From Oscillospiraceae bacterium (lineage in GTDB: Bacteria > Bacillota > Clostridia > Oscillospirales > Acutalibacteraceae): a DNA stretch of 64,000 nt. The position numbers and the translations under genes were made by a program. Where the stretch lies: contig SVPH01000007.1 in assembly GCA_015065965.1 (NCBI GenBank), positions 1 through 64,000 of the forward strand, written 5' to 3'. Below, one piece after another: positions 198 through 6,743 of the stretch. The notes below the pieces were generated by a model, which did not search any database, had not been told where the DNA came from, and worked only from the letters and a program-made list of their open reading frames with translations. The number at the start of each line of letters is the position of its first letter. Position 1 is the stretch's first letter.

Positions 198-236
198 AAC
201 AAGCGGCGGAGAAATCCGTCGCTTGTTCTTTTCAGA
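198..236. terminator. Bidirectional intrinsic terminator
   Basis: AACAAGCGGCGG pairs with CCGTCGCTTGTT around a short AGAAAT loop and is followed by CTTTTC. It lies between two convergent stop codons, so it can serve both the partial gene and the leftward operon. Confidence 0.8.
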
Positions 237-957
237 AAATTATGAGCCATTCCTTTTCTTTTTCATCGGGCGGAACATAGTTATTGATATATTTCCACTG
301 TGATTCGAAATGAGTTCTGATAATTTTCAGAGCTTGTTTCTCAAGAGTTTTTGCGCGGGATTCGGATAAACTGAAATGGGTTGCAGTCTCTTTTCTTGAA
401 CGATAAATATTGTCTTCGATACCGAAACGGTAGGAAATATATTGCCACTGTCTTTCGCTCAGGAGAGCGGTTGCTTCGTTGACGATGCTGTATTTTTTCT
501 CTTTGAAAAACACGTTTTCAGGAGTGTTACAGTAGATATCTGCCTTGCGTTCAAAGAGAGTACGTTCGATATATTCGGCATTGGTTTCGCCGTCGTAATC
601 ATCTGTATCATCATCAAAACTTGTGAAGGTGACAGGGTATTCTTCATCGGTTTCTTTGTTTTTTATTGTTTTGTTACAGTCCGTTGTTTCGATGAAAAGA
701 TTGATATGTTTTACAATCCAATATGTGGCGTAGGTAAGAAATTTTGTTCCGCGTTCGGGGTCGAATCTCGGAATTGCTGTGAGCACTCCGACGACTCCTT
801 CCTGAAAAAGTTCTTCGGCTTCTATGCCGTAATCTTTATATGCTTCAGCCTGATCGTTTGCGATTTTCCAGATGTATTTTTCAACGTTTTTCAGCAAATC
901 GCATTTTGCGTTTTCATCACCGCTCTGTGCAAGAACACAAAGTTCTTCGTTGGTCAT
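232..957 (-). CDS. Sigma-70 family RNA polymerase sigma factor of the mobile element
   Basis: This 241-aa protein has a sigma-70 region 2 (about residues 45-90, with GVVGVLTAIPRFDPERG and TYATYWIVKHI) and a C-terminal region 4-like helix-turn-helix (about residues 165-220, LSERQWQYISYRFGI, then SRKETATHFSLSESRAKTLEKQA). Region 1.1 and a clear region 3 are absent, so it is an alternative rather than housekeeping sigma factor. Its ATG overlaps the stop of the upstream XRE gene (ATGA), indicating translational coupling. It is the last gene of the HIRAN-peptides-XRE-sigma operon. The likely role is transcription of element genes; the target promoters are unknown. Confidence 0.85.
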   Translation of the reverse strand: MTNEELCVLAQSGDENAKCDLLKNVEKYIWKIANDQAEAYKDYGIEAEELFQEGVVGVLTAIPRFDPERGTKFLTYATYWIVKHINLFIETTDCNKTIKNKETDEEYPVTFTSFDDDTDDYDGETNAEYIERTLFERKADIYCNTPENVFFKEKKYSIVNEATALLSERQWQYISYRFGIEDNIYRSRKETATHFSLSESRAKTLEKQALKIIRTHFESQWKYINNYVPPDEKEKEWLIIF

Positions 958-1760
958 CTGTGTTTACCTTTCTGCGGTTTTATGAAAATCGGTATCAAAG
1001 CGTTGCGAAGATTATCTTTCATTTCCTGAGTAATTCCGTCGAAGTTACTTATCTGGTCAACAACAGCATCTGCCATTTTTTCTGCTGTTATTCTTCTGTA
1101 TGACAGACTGCCGCCACCTTTGGCAAGGCTCTGCCTGATGCCTGCAAAAGTTTCTTGCGTAAGTTTTTTTGAATGTGAAAAATCGGTGTCGACGGTTTTC
1201 TTTATATCTTTTACGATGGACATAAATCCGTTTTCAATCATAGTCAGGTCAGCTTGATATGCCGGAGTTTTTGCATTGCGTATATCTTCCGACACCTGCT
1301 TTGAAATTTCATCATCACCGCATACATTTCTGCTGATCATTTCATAAAGCAGGTTCTGCGCTGCAAACCCTTCGGCAAAAGTACCTTTGAAAAAATGAGC
1401 GATTTTATTCAACAGCGTTCCGAAGTCCGGATGTTCAAGCAGCATATTCAGAATATCGGGGTCAATCTCTCCCGTATAAATTTTCTTTGCAGCTTCGGAA
1501 GTCAGACCGAGTTCACCTATACTGAAATTTTTCGGTTCTGGATCATCGGAAAGTCCGAGGATGAAATCTGTTGACACCCCGAAAAGTTTTGCGATACTCA
1601 GAATCACATCGCTGTCGATTTTTTGTGATTCTCCCTTTTCGATTCTGCTGATTGTTGAATTGCTGACGTTAACCTGCTTTGCAAGTTCTTCCTGACTCCA
1701 GCCTTTGTTCTTACGCAAATCGACAATTCTGTCTCCCGGTGTTCCGCGTAAATATGTCAT
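954..1760 (-). CDS. XRE-family helix-turn-helix regulator
   Basis: This 268-aa protein begins with a Cro/CI-type HTH (about residues 8-65: LRKNKGWSQEELAKQVNVSN, then STISRIEKGES and an IAKLFGVSTDFILGLSDDP end). The remaining ~200 residues are helical and match no domain I recognise; they may sense a signal or mediate dimerisation. AGGAGG precedes the ATG by 7 bases. The gene follows two tiny hydrophobic-peptide ORFs and overlaps the sigma-factor start by 4 bases. As a lysogeny-type regulator next to divergent promoters at about 2.35-2.65 kb, it probably controls both operons of the element; this is inference. Confidence 0.88.
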   Translation of the reverse strand: MTYLRGTPGDRIVDLRKNKGWSQEELAKQVNVSNSTISRIEKGESQKIDSDVILSIAKLFGVSTDFILGLSDDPEPKNFSIGELGLTSEAAKKIYTGEIDPDILNMLLEHPDFGTLLNKIAHFFKGTFAEGFAAQNLLYEMISRNVCGDDEISKQVSEDIRNAKTPAYQADLTMIENGFMSIVKDIKKTVDTDFSHSKKLTQETFAGIRQSLAKGGGSLSYRRITAEKMADAVVDQISNFDGITQEMKDNLRNALIPIFIKPQKGKHR

Positions 1761-1774
1761 TTATCAGTCCTCCT

Positions 1775-1840
1775 TTAATCTTTGGAAATTTCATTAATGA
1801 ACACTCCAACCGACAATGCAATCAAAGCAATTACCCACAT
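1775..1840 (-). CDS. Tiny single-pass membrane peptide (21 aa)
   Basis: This ORF is too short for the ORF track. The minus strand reads MWVIALIALSVGVFINEISK plus a final D, then TAA. It is preceded by GAGGTG at a spacing of 6 from the ATG. Residues 2-15 are strongly hydrophobic and the tail is charged, as in small single-span membrane peptides. It lies 13 bases after the stop of a second similar peptide and its stop is 14 bases before the XRE ATG. The pattern of RBS, ATG, hydrophobic core, charged tail and stop, twice in a row, argues for real genes. Function unknown. Confidence 0.6.
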   Translation of the reverse strand: MWVIALIALSVGVFINEISKD

Positions 1841-1852
1841 ATTCAACACCTC

Positions 1853-1921
1853 TTATAATCCTTTTGTCCACTCTTTATAAAACGCCGATAATCCCAACAA
1901 CAAGACAAATAACCATATCAT
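1853..1921 (-). CDS. Tiny single-pass membrane peptide (22 aa)
   Basis: This ORF is too short for the ORF track. The minus strand reads MIWLFVLLLGLSAFYKEWTK plus GL, then TAA. GAGGG lies 6 bases before the ATG. Residues 2-14 form a hydrophobic core followed by a Lys/Glu/Trp tail. It follows the HIRAN gene by 12 bases and precedes the sister peptide by 12 bases. The two peptides share layout and length but little identity. They could be membrane-active toxins, regulators of a membrane protein or signalling peptides; the sequence does not decide. Confidence 0.6.
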   Translation of the reverse strand: MIWLFVLLLGLSAFYKEWTKGL

Positions 1922-1933
1922 ATTTATTCCCTC

Positions 1934-2320
1934 TTAAAATCCGATTTTTGCTTTGGTTTTGGGTTTACTGTTACCCGATTCCTTTTCTTTGACGGGCGGA
2001 GCATCTTTGTCGCCTTCTACCTCATCGGGTGAAAGCACAAGTGCGATAACGCTTGAATGAGTGATAAACATTGTCTGAGCATAGGCATAATCATCAATTT
2101 TGTCGTAGAGTCTGCCTGCACTGACCGTACCTGCATAAACGGTGCTTGTGCTGTTGGCAACGTAGCCGATTGTGTCGATAGCGGGAAGCTCGGCGCGTAT
2201 TGCTTCTTCGTCATAATCGTTATCATCTTCTTTGACGATTCTGAAAATCTTACCGACTTTGAACGGCTTCATGCCGAAATAATTCTTGACTCCTGTTATC
2301 GTGATAAAAACATTTTCCAT
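1934..2320 (-). CDS. HIRAN-domain protein
   Basis: This 128-aa protein matches the small stand-alone HIRAN proteins of Firmicutes mobile elements: ITGVKNYFGMKPFKVGKIFRIVKEDDNDYDEEAIRAELP, then DTIGYVANS and a SAGRLYDK segment. HIRAN is an OB-like fold that binds damaged or 3-prime-ended DNA in larger helicase proteins. Here only the domain (about residues 1-95) and a Lys/Pro-rich tail are present. It is the first gene of the leftward operon, with GGAAAAAAG upstream of its ATG. A role in recognising DNA ends during transfer or repair is plausible but not shown. Confidence 0.75.
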   Translation of the reverse strand: MENVFITITGVKNYFGMKPFKVGKIFRIVKEDDNDYDEEAIRAELPAIDTIGYVANSTSTVYAGTVSAGRLYDKIDDYAYAQTMFITHSSVIALVLSPDEVEGDKDAPPVKEKESGNSKPKTKAKIGF

Positions 2321-2559
2321 AACTTTTTTCCTTTCTTTTCTTTAAAAATCCGAACTTCACTTTGGCAATTAACGTATCTTACACCTATATAATATAATTT
2401 TTAATGTCCCAAAAAACGGACTCTGAAACAGTAAAAATCACTTAAAATTTGCAGATTTGCAAGTTTTCAGCCCGAATCGAATGGCAAAATTGCAGAAACA
2501 GCGGATTTCAGAGGTATACACTTTTTCACCGTATAATGATATTGAAGGGCGGTGATGCA

Positions 2560-2652: not shown

Positions 2653-3225
2653 ATGTCAATTTATGAAGCAGTCAGATCAAAAGTAAATCTGCGCATGGCG
2701 GCAGAAAAATACGGAATGAATATCGGTAAAAACTCGATGGTACGCTGTCCGTTTCACGATGACCGTACACCGAGCATGAAACTCAACAACAAATACTATT
2801 ACTGCTTCGGTTGCGGCGCAAAGGGTGACGTTATCAGTCTTGTCGCAGAGCATCTCGGCTTGTCTGCCGCCGATGCGGCGCAGAGAATTGCTGATGATTT
2901 TGTAATTGAAAAAGAAAACAAATCCGTTATTGCAAAGTTGAATTTTCACAAAGAAAAACAGAAACGGCGTGACAGATGTGTGCGTGTTCTCTGTGATTAC
3001 AACCGCATTTTGCGGAAATGGATGACTGACTATGCACCGAAAACGGCAGATGAAAAACTGCATCCGAGATTTGCCGAAGCTTGCCGTATGCTCGAAGTTA
3101 CCGAATACATGGCGGAGCTTCTCAACACAGGCACAAAAGAAGAACAGAACGAGGTTGTTGACGACCTTTTCCGCAACAACTGTATTGAACATCTTGAAAA
3201 ATATATCAAAGAAAACAAGGAGTGA
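2653..3225 (+). CDS. CHC2 zinc-finger protein (DnaG-primase N-terminal domain only)
   Basis: The N-terminal ~85 residues form a primase-type CHC2 zinc ribbon: VRCPFHDDRTPSMKL supplies the first Cys and His, and YYYCFGCGAKGDVISLV supplies the last two Cys. The remaining ~100 residues are helical and lack the TOPRIM catalytic domain, so the 190-aa protein cannot be a full primase. Such short CHC2 proteins are common next to Mob genes in Firmicutes elements. GAAAGGAG precedes the ATG. The stop overlaps the GTG of the next gene (GTGA). A role in DNA binding during element replication or transfer is likely but inferred. Confidence 0.8.
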   Translation: MSIYEAVRSKVNLRMAAEKYGMNIGKNSMVRCPFHDDRTPSMKLNNKYYYCFGCGAKGDVISLVAEHLGLSAADAAQRIADDFVIEKENKSVIAKLNFHKEKQKRRDRCVRVLCDYNRILRKWMTDYAPKTADEKLHPRFAEACRMLEVTEYMAELLNTGTKEEQNEVVDDLFRNNCIEHLEKYIKENKE

Positions 3226-4214
3226 TTTTTATAGGCAAAGAAACGAAAAGTCAGCACGCAATAATGAGATTTGCAAAATACAAGGGTCCCGAAATCAGCA
3301 GAATTGAGGCTCATAATGAACGCACGAAAGAGGTTTACTCAAGCAATCCCGACGTTGATACCGAGAGAAGCAAATACAACATTCATCTTGTTAAACCGAA
3401 TTCAAAATACCGTGCAGAAGCAGAAAGACAGATTGCAGCCGCAGGCTGCAGAACAAGAACAGACAGCGTCAGAATTGTTGAAACGCTGATAACAGCAAGT
3501 CCCGAATTCTTCAAGGGAAAGAAAAAAGCACAGGTCAGAGAATATTTTGAACATTCACTGAAATTCATTCTGAAACATGTTCCAAAGGAAAGAATCATAT
3601 CTGCGGTAATTCACGTTGATGAAAAAACACCGCATATGCATCTGTCGTTTGTACCGATAACAGAAGACGGCAGACTGAGTGCAAAAGACATAGTAGGTAA
3701 CAGAAAAAAGCTGACTTGGTGGCAGGATGAATTCTGGAAACACATGGTGAAGAAATATCCCGATATGGAACGCGGCGAAAGTGCAAGCGTGACGGGAAGA
3801 ACACATATTCCTCCCTCGCTTTTCAAAGAAGCTGTGCATCTTAACCGCATGAAGGAACAGATTATGACCCTGATGGCGGATACAAACATAATCAATAAAA
3901 AGACAAAAACCGAGGAGCTTGAAGCTCTTCTTGAAAGATATATTCCCGGAGTTGAAGCTTTGAGAACAAAGCTGAAAAGATACGATAAGGCATATAAGGA
4001 GCTGACCGAAGAAGTCAGTGAACTCGAAAAGAAGCTTGACTCTGCATCAAAAGACAGCGTGCAGAGAAAGCTTGAAATTAATCAGAAACTCAGCGAACTT
4101 GAAGAACTGAGGAAAACAGTTGATGCTATTCCGCCCGAGTTTATAAAAACCGTAAGGAATAACGCGGCGAATAAAGAAGCCGCCACAAGTAAAAATAAGG
4201 AGAAAGGAGTGTGA
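3222..4214 (+). CDS. mobV: MobV/Pre-type relaxase (plasmid recombination/mobilization protein)
   Basis: This relaxase nicks the origin of transfer so that the element can be mobilised by a helper conjugation system. Residues ~10-215 show the Pre/Mob fold: SQHAIMRFAKYKG at the N-terminus, then the metal-binding HVDEKTPHMHLSFVP motif near residue 130. Residues ~240-320 are heptad-rich coiled coil (LTEEVSELEKKLDSASKD). The track start is GTG at 3222, overlapping the previous stop. AAGGAG lies directly against it, so initiation may be downstream; the in-frame ATA at 3231 is best spaced but non-canonical, and ATG 3264 would remove the conserved SQHAI residues. No coupling-protein or T4SS genes are visible, fitting a mobilizable rather than self-conjugative element. 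Confidence 0.88.
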   Translation: MIFIGKETKSQHAIMRFAKYKGPEISRIEAHNERTKEVYSSNPDVDTERSKYNIHLVKPNSKYRAEAERQIAAAGCRTRTDSVRIVETLITASPEFFKGKKKAQVREYFEHSLKFILKHVPKERIISAVIHVDEKTPHMHLSFVPITEDGRLSAKDIVGNRKKLTWWQDEFWKHMVKKYPDMERGESASVTGRTHIPPSLFKEAVHLNRMKEQIMTLMADTNIINKKTKTEELEALLERYIPGVEALRTKLKRYDKAYKELTEEVSELEKKLDSASKDSVQRKLEINQKLSELEELRKTVDAIPPEFIKTVRNNAANKEAATSKNKEKGV

Positions 4215-4577: not shown

Positions 4578-6743
4578 ATGACAGAAAAATTCAATATTGC
4601 GGGCTATGTCCGCATTTCGGTCGATGATGAACTTGACCGAGACAATGTTTCAATTGAAAACCAGAAGGCAATTATTGCCGATTATGTAAAAATCAATTTC
4701 CCCGGTAGCGATCTCACCTTTTTTGAAGAACGTGACCGCTCAGGTTACACTTTTGAACAGCGTGAAAGCTATCAGGAAATGCGGAAGGGTCTTTTATCCC
4801 ATAAATACGATATTCTTATCGTAAAAGACTTTTCAAGATTCTCGCGCCGTACCAGTCAGGGTCTTATGGAATTGGAAAATTTCCGTGACGAAGGTGTGCG
4901 TATTATTTCTATTGGCGACACCGTTGACTTTCCCAATAACAACGACTGGTTCAAAATTTCAATTCATTTTATTATGAACGAAATGCCCGTTACGGAAACT
5001 TCAAGAAAAGTCAAGAACGTTATAGAACGTCGCCAGAATGACGGTGAATGGATTTGTGCCGCGCCTTACGGCTATATCATCAATACCCATAAGAAATTTG
5101 AGATTGTTCCTACAGAAGCAGAGATCGTCAGAAAAATCTTTGACCTTTATATTAATGAAGGTATGGGTTATAACAGCATCGCAAATTATCTGACCGACAG
5201 CGGTGTTCCGACGCCGAGAATGTCAGAGCAGATGCGAAAGGAAGCCGAAGGTAAAGAGTATAAGCGGCAGGTCAAGGCTGTCTGGGCAATCGAAACGATT
5301 CACGGTATACTTCAGAACGATTTCTATATCGGCACTCTGAGACAAAGCAAATATACACGGGTAAAAATCAACGGCAAAAGCAAAAAACTTGATGACGGAA
5401 ACCATATTATCCATGAAGATCATCATCAGGCAATTATTGATTACCGTACTTTCGCTCTTGCCCGTGCGGCTATGGAAAGCCGTTCACGCAACAACTACCG
5501 CGGCGTAAAAATCAACGATAATATTTATTCAGGTCTCCTTAAATGCGGTGACTGCGGAAGTCCTATGTTTGCTACGGGCGGACAGTCAAGAAAATCTGCC
5601 TATACCTGTGGAACCTATCACAGAAGAGGACTCAAAGGTTGCACAAGTCATCATATCCGTGTGGACAAGCTTGATGAAGTCGTAAAGCTTTACGTTGAAA
5701 AAATCATGCAGAATTCTGCAGCTATGATTGATCAGCTCAATGCTGACCTTGAATGCGAAAATGAGAATATTGAAGAAACCGAGCAGACGGCAGAAAATAT
5801 CGCCAAGGTTCTTGTTGATCTGAACGAAGAACTTAAGGTAACAAAACGTATGCGCATCCGCGAAATCATGAAAAATCCTGACCGCGAGGCGGATATTGAA
5901 GATATGTACGACGAGCTTGAATCTGATTTGCAAAGAAAGATTGACGGTCTGAATCATCAGCTTGATATGCTCTCGGACAAACGCAACACAATTATAAGAG
6001 TTAACCGTGTTGCAAAAACTGCAATCGATATTTTCTCTGATATTCTCACAAAAGAAAAGCTCGAGCGTAATGATCTCGAGCTGATAATCGAAGCAATTTA
6101 TGTTTTTGAGGATCATATTGAAATAAAGCTTCAGCGCGATATTGATATGATTCTCAGATGCGGAACACTTCCCGAACCCTTGGAGGAAGCCGCAAATTTT
6201 AATTCAGGCACTGTAGATATCTTATCTGCTGAATTAGTCCAAGTGAGCAGAAATCACTCGGACAAGGTTTACAGTGTCAATGTTATCAGTAACGGCGACC
6301 CGTTGGAGATTTACACGGATGCGGACGGTGAGGTAATTTTTAAAAAATATTCGCCTATCGGAGAACTATCTTCGATTACGGGGCAGTATGCCGATGTGCT
6401 TGCGAGGGGTACGGGCCTTGCGGTTGTTGTTACCGACAGGGACAGTGTTATCGCATGCGCAGGCATATCAAAGAAAGAGATGCTTGACCGCAGAGTAAGC
6501 CGCAGCCTTGAGGGGCTTATGGAGCGCAGAGAAAACTATGTGTGCTGCGTGGACAGTGAGCGAATGAAGCCCATTGAAGGTGTTGACAAAGAGGCAGCGG
6601 TAGCGTTCCCGATTGTAGGCGGCGGAGATGTTTCGGGCGCAATTGTGATGCTGCTCAACGAAAACGGCTCATGCCCTACGCAGACGGAAACAAAACTTGC
6701 TCAGATTGCGGCAAACTTCCTCGGAAAACAGATGGAAGAATAA
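4578..6743 (+). CDS. Large serine recombinase fused in frame to the C-terminal part of SpoVT
   Basis: Residues ~7-150 are the resolvase catalytic domain with Ser14 in YVRIS and the VKDFSRFSRRTSQGL arginine segment. Residues ~160-285 are the recombinase domain, a zinc ribbon (CGDCG ... YTCGTYHRRGLKGC) spans ~323-358, and a coiled coil spans ~385-475. From residue 573 the protein is SpoVT: GDPLEIYTDADGEVIFKKYS, then a GAF-like sensor domain ending FLGKQMEE. SpoVT normally has ~178 residues; here its first ~30, the N-terminal part of the AbrB domain, are missing. The element has therefore integrated inside spoVT and the reading frame continues across the attachment site. Whether the hybrid protein remains an active recombinase is not known. 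Confidence 0.88.
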   Translation: MTEKFNIAGYVRISVDDELDRDNVSIENQKAIIADYVKINFPGSDLTFFEERDRSGYTFEQRESYQEMRKGLLSHKYDILIVKDFSRFSRRTSQGLMELENFRDEGVRIISIGDTVDFPNNNDWFKISIHFIMNEMPVTETSRKVKNVIERRQNDGEWICAAPYGYIINTHKKFEIVPTEAEIVRKIFDLYINEGMGYNSIANYLTDSGVPTPRMSEQMRKEAEGKEYKRQVKAVWAIETIHGILQNDFYIGTLRQSKYTRVKINGKSKKLDDGNHIIHEDHHQAIIDYRTFALARAAMESRSRNNYRGVKINDNIYSGLLKCGDCGSPMFATGGQSRKSAYTCGTYHRRGLKGCTSHHIRVDKLDEVVKLYVEKIMQNSAAMIDQLNADLECENENIEETEQTAENIAKVLVDLNEELKVTKRMRIREIMKNPDREADIEDMYDELESDLQRKIDGLNHQLDMLSDKRNTIIRVNRVAKTAIDIFSDILTKEKLERNDLELIIEAIYVFEDHIEIKLQRDIDMILRCGTLPEPLEEAANFNSGTVDILSAELVQVSRNHSDKVYSVNVISNGDPLEIYTDADGEVIFKKYSPIGELSSITGQYADVLARGTGLAVVVTDRDSVIACAGISKKEMLDRRVSRSLEGLMERRENYVCCVDSERMKPIEGVDKEAAVAFPIVGGGDVSGAIVMLLNENGSCPTQTETKLAQIAANFLGKQMEE
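6285..6310 (+). other. Inferred right attachment junction of the element within spoVT
   Basis: The translated frame changes from recombinase-type sequence (VYSVNVISN) to SpoVT sequence (GDPLEIYTD) at 6294. Large serine recombinases cross over within a short core, so the core is expected in or next to GGCGACCC. The exact crossover cannot be fixed without the left junction. Confidence 0.6.
6294..6743 (+). pseudogene. spoVT: spoVT 3-prime fragment (AbrB C-terminal half plus GAF-like domain)
   Basis: These ~149 codons match SpoVT from about residue 31 onward, including FKKYSPIGELSSITGQYADV, TDRDSVIACAGISKKE and the terminal helix IAANFLGKQMEE. SpoVT is a forespore transcriptional regulator expressed under SigG; its AbrB N-terminus binds DNA and its GAF-like half tetramerises. 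Without the N-terminal strand-swapped AbrB residues, this piece cannot bind DNA normally. It may be restored by element excision. Confidence 0.85.

What the first reader, a model, noticed from the sequence alone, without database searches (positions are those of the whole stretch)
1775..1921. Two tandem ~21-aa hydrophobic peptides in the HIRAN-XRE-sigma operon
Neither is in the ORF track. Each has its own Shine-Dalgarno, ATG, hydrophobic core, charged tail and stop, with gaps of 12-14 bases to all neighbours. Repetition of this layout between two certain genes is unlikely by chance. They could be membrane-active toxins, transfer-inhibition or entry-exclusion peptides, or signals read by the XRE/sigma pair. 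I know of no described role for such a pair in this context.
Basis: partly seen in the sequence, partly recalled or inferred. Interest (0 to 1): 0.7.

Follow-up and report, generated by a model that had tools for sequence, protein, structure and literature searches.

The report
Twin tiny membrane-peptide genes, genus-specific
Two unannotated genes encoding related 21-22 amino-acid membrane peptides sit in a mobile element of a gut bacterium; relatives elsewhere in the same genus show they are real, selected genes that move as a small cassette, but what they do is still untested.

Summary
The peptides are real genes. I found 8 copies of peptide 1 and 7 of peptide 2 in 7 genomes of one genus. 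Every copy has ATG, Shine-Dalgarno and stop, and none is frameshifted. Selection is purifying (pooled 17 non-synonymous versus 25 synonymous changes, P about 1e-7). The two peptides are probable paralogues: a non-amphipathic hydrophobic core, then a conserved K-E-x-[ST]-K tail. They are not tied to XRE/sigma. Seven of 8 close HIRAN copies carry one or both peptides. They also occur without HIRAN: a peptide 1-peptide 2 pair standing alone, peptide 1 alone at the end of a different integrated element with its own predicted promoter, and peptide 2 behind an unrelated gene. No library family matches, and beyond the genus only chance matches were seen. Best reading: conditionally expressed single-pass membrane microproteins acting at the cytoplasmic membrane, toxin-like in design but without a detected RNA antitoxin. 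The gene call is near certain; the mechanism is inference (about 0.4). The element interrupts spoVT.

The parts
1853..1921 (-). peptide 1 gene, MIWLFVLLLGLSAFYKEWTKGL
   Evidence: 8 copies in the genus, purifying selection
1775..1840 (-). peptide 2 gene, MWVIALIALSVGVFINEISKD
   Evidence: 7 copies in the genus, purifying selection
1929..1935 (-). Shine-Dalgarno AAGAGGG of peptide 1, overlapping the HIRAN stop codon
   Evidence: sequence; GAGAGG/GGAGGAGG/AAGAAGG kept in all copies
1849..1854 (-). Shine-Dalgarno AAGAGG of peptide 2
   Evidence: sequence; kept in all copies
1934..2320 (-). HIRAN-domain protein, 128 aa, first gene of the operon
   Evidence: Pfam PF08797, 27.2 bits against a cut-off of 24.7; 7 of 8 close homologues are followed by one or both peptides
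2404..2421 (-). GTCCGTTTTTTGGGACAT, conserved element upstream of the HIRAN operon (probable promoter or operator part)
   Evidence: not enriched genome-wide in relaxed form
954..1760 (-). XRE-family regulator, 268 aa, SD at 1769-1776
   Evidence: Pfam HTH_3
232..957 (-). sigma-70-like factor, 241 aa, overlaps the XRE stop
   Evidence: Pfam Sigma70_r2/r4, HTH_16
2653..3225 (+). CHC2 zinc-finger (primase-like) protein of the mobile element
3222..4214 (+). Mob_Pre (MobV-type) relaxase
4578..6743 (+). large serine recombinase, C-terminally fused to the SpoVT GAF half by integration

Best explanation
Peptides 1 and 2 are two probably paralogous members of a genus-specific family of very small single-pass membrane proteins, carried as a cassette, most often behind a HIRAN-domain gene, on integrative elements and in chromosomal islands of one Clostridia genus. 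Shown: both are selected genes with their own translation signals; they are hydrophobic and not amphipathic; they keep a charged C-terminal tail (KEWTKGL / KEISK); they can exist alone. Inferred: each inserts as one helix, N-terminus out and C-terminal tail in the cytosol (no charge before residue 15 or 16, lysines and aromatic residues after it); the two act together or as interchangeable versions; they are made when the operon is switched on and act directly on the cytoplasmic membrane or on a protein in it, slowing or arresting the cell if made in quantity, in the manner of small membrane peptides such as IbsC, DinQ or TisB. Confidence: real genes 0.97, membrane insertion 0.9, direct membrane action 0.4.
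For: Eight and seven copies with intact frames; purifying selection, P about 1e-7; core hydropathy 1.7-2.8 with low hydrophobic moment 0.04-0.19; gapless register between the two peptides, shuffle p = 0.005, and hhalign E 1.6e-5 at probability 79%; stand-alone units: L142, peptide 1-peptide 2 between a divergent and a convergent gene, and L144, peptide 1 with TTGACA-17-TATTTT at the end of a tyrosine-integrase/DnaB element; no HIRAN found in G314 and G315 and only a broken fragment in G308. Known small membrane type I toxins share size, one helix and a cationic, mostly cytosolic C-terminus (PMC8309996; IbsC is 19 aa).
Against: No toxicity, localisation or expression data. No antisense RNA candidate: opposite-strand promoter-like sites are at chance level in the window, Rfam gives only spurious hits and the leaders are unstructured. 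Strong open Shine-Dalgarno sites in an operon are unusual for a potent toxin. Tail charge of peptide 2 varies from -1 to +1. The core of about 14 residues is short for a membrane span. Paralogy rests on two short, similarly hydrophobic sequences.
Confidence: 0.45

Rival explanations
1. Non-toxic regulatory or anchoring microproteins: each binds one specific membrane protein through its helix and reads or tethers a cytosolic partner with the conserved KE-x-[ST]-K tail, in the manner of KdpF or AcrZ.
For: The tail is conserved more than the core (G10, L11, F14, K16, T19, K20, G21 invariant in peptide 1); strong constitutive-looking Shine-Dalgarno sites; clean presence or absence; small membrane proteins often regulate transporters (PMC7667032 introduction).
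Against: No constant partner: peptides occur with HIRAN, without it, beside sbcDC, beside a KAP NTPase, or alone at the end of an integrated element.
Confidence: 0.35
2. HIRAN-peptide module: the HIRAN protein binds DNA ends or stalled forks and controls the peptides, as HIRAN proteins are predicted antitoxins for HipA in other operons; the peptides are the effector.
For: 7 of 8 close HIRAN copies are followed directly by one or both peptides; chromosomal copies lie next to sbcD-sbcC; HIRAN next to HipA is predicted to be an antitoxin (PMC11706625).
Against: Peptides occur in three genomes without an intact HIRAN; one close HIRAN (G320) has no peptide and diverged HIRAN genes have none.
Confidence: 0.12
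3. Classical type I toxin-antitoxin: peptide genes repressed by an antisense RNA.
For: Size, helix, cationic tail, several copies per genome, location on mobile elements.
Against: No antisense promoter above chance, no structured or sequestering leader, no conserved non-coding flank; coding neighbours within 14 nt in the window; the gene alone in L144 has a leader of only about 20 nt.
Confidence: 0.07
4. Signal peptides or pheromones read by the XRE/sigma pair.
For: They lie directly upstream of XRE in this element, and 0.9-1.8 kb upstream of a related XRE in G316 and G314.
Against: 12 other XRE relatives of the genus lack them; peptides occur in loci without XRE; the polarity (hydrophobic first, charged last) is opposite to known pro-pheromones such as Shp or iCF10 (own knowledge).
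Confidence: 0.04
5. Entry-exclusion or superinfection-exclusion peptides of the mobile element.
For: Several copies are on integrative elements (window/L137, L140, L144).
Against: Also at chromosomal sites beside sbcDC and in loci without any transfer gene.
Confidence: 0.05

Closest known systems
Small membrane type I toxins (IbsC 19 aa, Fst 33 aa, TisB, DinQ, Lpt)
   Same: Very short, one hydrophobic helix, charged C-terminal tail expected in the cytosol, several copies, often on mobile DNA (PMC8309996)
   Different: No antisense RNA or sequestering leader found; here co-transcribed as a tandem pair inside an operon; no family-library match
Hol_Tox (PF16935), putative holin-like toxins of Firmicutes
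   Same: Short hydrophobic peptide; weak hit of peptide 2 (E = 0.1, 12.9 bits, cut-off 23.3)
   Different: Below the curated cut-off, matches only the hydrophobic part, peptide 1 has no hit
Genus-specific smORF families (GMSC catalogue)
   Same: Unannotated, short, lineage-restricted, possibly membrane proteins; about half of the families examined there are genus-specific (PMC11364881)
   Different: Here a tandem paralogous pair with a defined HIRAN cassette and several genomic contexts
HIRAN-HipA(-diDNase) operons
   Same: Small HIRAN protein in a mobile or defence-island setting, with a partner encoded beside it (PMC11706625)
   Different: No HipA or diDNase recognised beside these peptide genes; the neighbours are the membrane peptides

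Membership tests
Type I toxin-antitoxin systems | small hydrophobic peptide (<60 aa) with one predicted membrane helix and charged C-terminus | tested here: met
   21-24 aa, core hydropathy 1.7-2.8, K/E tail; features after PMC8309996
Type I toxin-antitoxin systems | antisense or adjacent RNA antitoxin | tested here: inconclusive
   three promoter-like sites against 2.9 expected in the window, no Rfam family; absence not provable from sequence
Type I toxin-antitoxin systems | toxic on overexpression | not testable with these tools
   needs an experiment
Hol_Tox (PF16935) | score above the Pfam gathering cut-off | tested here: not met
   12.9 against 23.3 bits for peptide 2, no hit for the other peptides tested
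Any Pfam, NCBIfam, PHROGs or PADLOC family (for the peptides) | match at the curated or default threshold | tested here: not met
   PADLOC was scanned with peptide 1 only
XRE/sigma-linked signal peptides | consistent linkage to the regulator genes | tested here: not met
   2 of 16 XRE relatives have peptides adjacent, and these are one element; peptide loci exist without XRE
HIRAN-linked module | peptide directly downstream of HIRAN | tested here: met
   7 of 8 close HIRAN copies, but 3 peptide loci lack HIRAN and diverged HIRANs lack peptides
Integrative and mobilizable element (host element) | relaxase, recombinase and integration site | tested here: met
   Mob_Pre relaxase and large serine recombinase; spoVT split at GGCGACCCGTT

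The most novel reading that the evidence does not exclude
HIRAN plus twin membrane peptides form a mobile DNA-damage or DNA-entry alarm: a HIRAN protein that senses DNA ends or stalled forks, next to SbcCD in its chromosomal form, controls two partner peptides that together depolarise or otherwise change the membrane. This would be a protein-only counterpart of SOS-linked TisB/DinQ and would give prokaryotic HIRAN proteins, called uncharacterised in PMC11090510, a function.
Probability: 0.1. Interest if true: 0.75.

Novelty: new member of a known kind. Interest (0 to 1): 0.42.

Why it matters
It shows by comparative evidence that genes of 21 codons, below the usual annotation cut-offs, are maintained by selection on mobile elements of gut Clostridia, and gives a defined cassette (HIRAN plus one or two peptides) with natural single-gene, paired and HIRAN-free variants. 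Those variants allow direct tests of whether the peptides need each other or HIRAN, and of what small bacterial HIRAN proteins do.

Tried and rejected
SOS control of the operon: the motif AGTCCGTTTTWTGGKAC upstream of HIRAN looked like an operator, but a relaxed form of it occurs 9 times in the genome against 11 for the reversed control and no hit precedes a recognisable SOS gene. Relatives outside the genus: profile searches of about 380-400 genomes of the family gave only chance-level partial matches, an exact pattern found only the window in 394 genomes of the order, and one viral contig (L135) carries FYKEWTKG inside an unrelated GC-rich frame, judged chance. Phage and plasmid collections: no peptide 1 match. 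Remnant of a larger membrane protein: rejected, since diverged copies keep start, Shine-Dalgarno and stop. Amphipathic, modulin-like peptides: rejected on low hydrophobic moment. Leader-peptide or RNA element: rejected on protein-level conservation and unremarkable folding. Downstream peptides behind diverged HIRAN genes: none.

Full report
Observation. On the minus strand the window reads HIRAN (1934-2320), peptide 1 (1853-1921), peptide 2 (1775-1840), XRE (954-1760), sigma (232-957), with gaps of 12, 12 and 14 nt and an overlap of 4 nt between XRE and sigma. Pfam confirms HIRAN, HTH_3 and Sigma70; on the plus strand lie a CHC2 zinc-finger protein, a Mob_Pre relaxase and a large serine recombinase. 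The operon is therefore on an integrative and mobilizable element.

Are the peptides genes? The nearest copy of the element (L003/L069/L137, goat-colon MAG RGIG2096) differs at four bases in the two peptides, all synonymous. Searches in the genus (45 genomes) found peptide 2 in G309 (twice), G314, G145, G315 and G316, with E from 1.7e-8 to 1.4e-3, and peptide 1 in G309 (three times), G316 (twice), G315 and G308, with E from 1.9e-14 to 3.6e-8. All 8 copies of peptide 1 and 7 of peptide 2 have ATG, a GAGAGG-like Shine-Dalgarno and a stop. Pairwise counts show few amino-acid changes for many silent ones; six independent contrasts give 17 non-synonymous and 25 synonymous changes, P = 1.0e-7 under neutrality. 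This is decisive for protein-coding function.

Anatomy. Both peptides have an uncharged core of about 14 residues, with low hydrophobic moment, and then F-[YWCFI]-[KN]-[EA]-x-[ST]-K in nearly all copies. They align without gaps (shuffle p = 0.005; hhalign E 1.6e-5, probability 79%), so they are probably tandem duplicates. The spacers before peptide 1 and peptide 2 are alike in the window (TAAGAGG...AATATG). Positive charge after the core and none before it suggests N-out/C-in; this is inference.

Context. Copies fall into these arrangements: HIRAN-p1-p2-XRE-sigma (window and G309:C5, one element); HIRAN-p1-p2 divergent from a MobV relaxase (G316:C58); HIRAN-p1-p2 followed by a KAP NTPase gene (G309:C3; the KAP protein matches QatA, PDC-S20 and PifA models); HIRAN-p2 (G145); HIRAN-p1 next to sbcD-sbcC (G309:C13, G316:C42); p1-p2 alone (G315); p2 behind an unrelated 82-aa gene (G314); p1 alone with a 10-of-12 promoter match at the end of a tyrosine-integrase/DnaB element near a tRNA-Arg gene (G308). 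One close HIRAN copy, in G320 beside sbcD, has no peptide. Of 16 XRE relatives in the genus only the two copies of this one element have the peptides adjacent, and the 77%-identical XRE-sigma pair (L004) lacks them. The peptide genes are thus a cassette linked to HIRAN and not to XRE/sigma, and they survive without HIRAN: none was found in G314 or G315 and only a fragment in G308 (these MAGs are 80-88% complete). More distant HIRAN genes have no such peptide behind them.

Distribution. Outside the genus, profile searches of 398 and 378 family genomes gave only short partial hits inside unrelated frames or at chance level; an exact DNA pattern hit only the window in 394 genomes of the order. 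Viral, phage and plasmid collections gave nothing convincing. Libraries of families gave no match; the only hint is Hol_Tox at E = 0.1, below its cut-off.

Mechanism. The peptides match small membrane type I toxins in size, helix and charged tail (PMC8309996), but no antisense RNA sign was found: promoter-like sites equal chance, Rfam hits are spurious and leaders fold no better than shuffles. In L142 a terminator-like hairpin lies just downstream on the opposite strand, where it most simply ends the convergent gene. I commit to single-pass microproteins acting at the cytoplasmic membrane when the operon is on (0.4), with a non-toxic regulatory subunit next (0.35). A HIRAN-controlled effector is attractive because HIRAN is a predicted antitoxin for HipA (PMC11706625) and its chromosomal copy lies by sbcDC, but the HIRAN-free loci speak against an obligate pair.

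Novelty. Genus-specific small protein families are common (PMC11364881), so this is a new family of a known kind; the new points are the tandem paralogues, the HIRAN cassette and the natural variants that make it testable. No paper in the searches made here describes the pair; only open-licence papers could be searched.

Noticed in passing
window 4578-6743; G000:C49:6232-6339 (L155/L183); intact in L145 near 14490 and L146 near 10051: The element interrupts spoVT: the serine recombinase reads in frame into the C-terminal half of SpoVT, and the AbrB half lies on another contig ending at the same GGCGACCCGTT core. This resembles sporulation-gene-intervening elements such as gin (PMC5595907); whether it excises in sporulation is open.
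   Followed up: partly
L137:7312-8038: The G309 copy of the element carries an extra gene pair between recombinase and relaxase, a minimal nucleotidyltransferase-like protein and a HEPN-like partner matching defence-candidate models (PDC-S09, PDC-M05B), absent from the window copy.
   Followed up: no
window 2404-2421 (-); L004, L126, L133, L139, L141, L145: A conserved element AGTCCGTTTTWTGGKAC, followed by a TATAAT-like box about 15 nt on, precedes several HIRAN copies, an XRE gene and other genes of the genus; its regulator is unknown and it is not enriched genome-wide in relaxed form.
   Followed up: partly
L138:2330-4838 and L145:8597-11120: KAP-family NTPase with a roughly 295-aa partner of unknown family, near HIRAN-peptide loci in two genomes; the KAP protein matches anti-phage models.
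   Followed up: no
L143, L145 and L140, downstream of peptide 2: Shared downstream sequence with GTTGTCGGGTTTTCCGACAACGG-like repeats that reads like a remnant of a replication-initiator C-terminus; suggests past deletion next to the peptide genes.
   Followed up: no
window 1934-2040: The HIRAN protein ends in a low-complexity tail with a conserved C-terminus (KPKTKAKIGF) in nearly all close copies, possibly an interaction tail.
   Followed up: no
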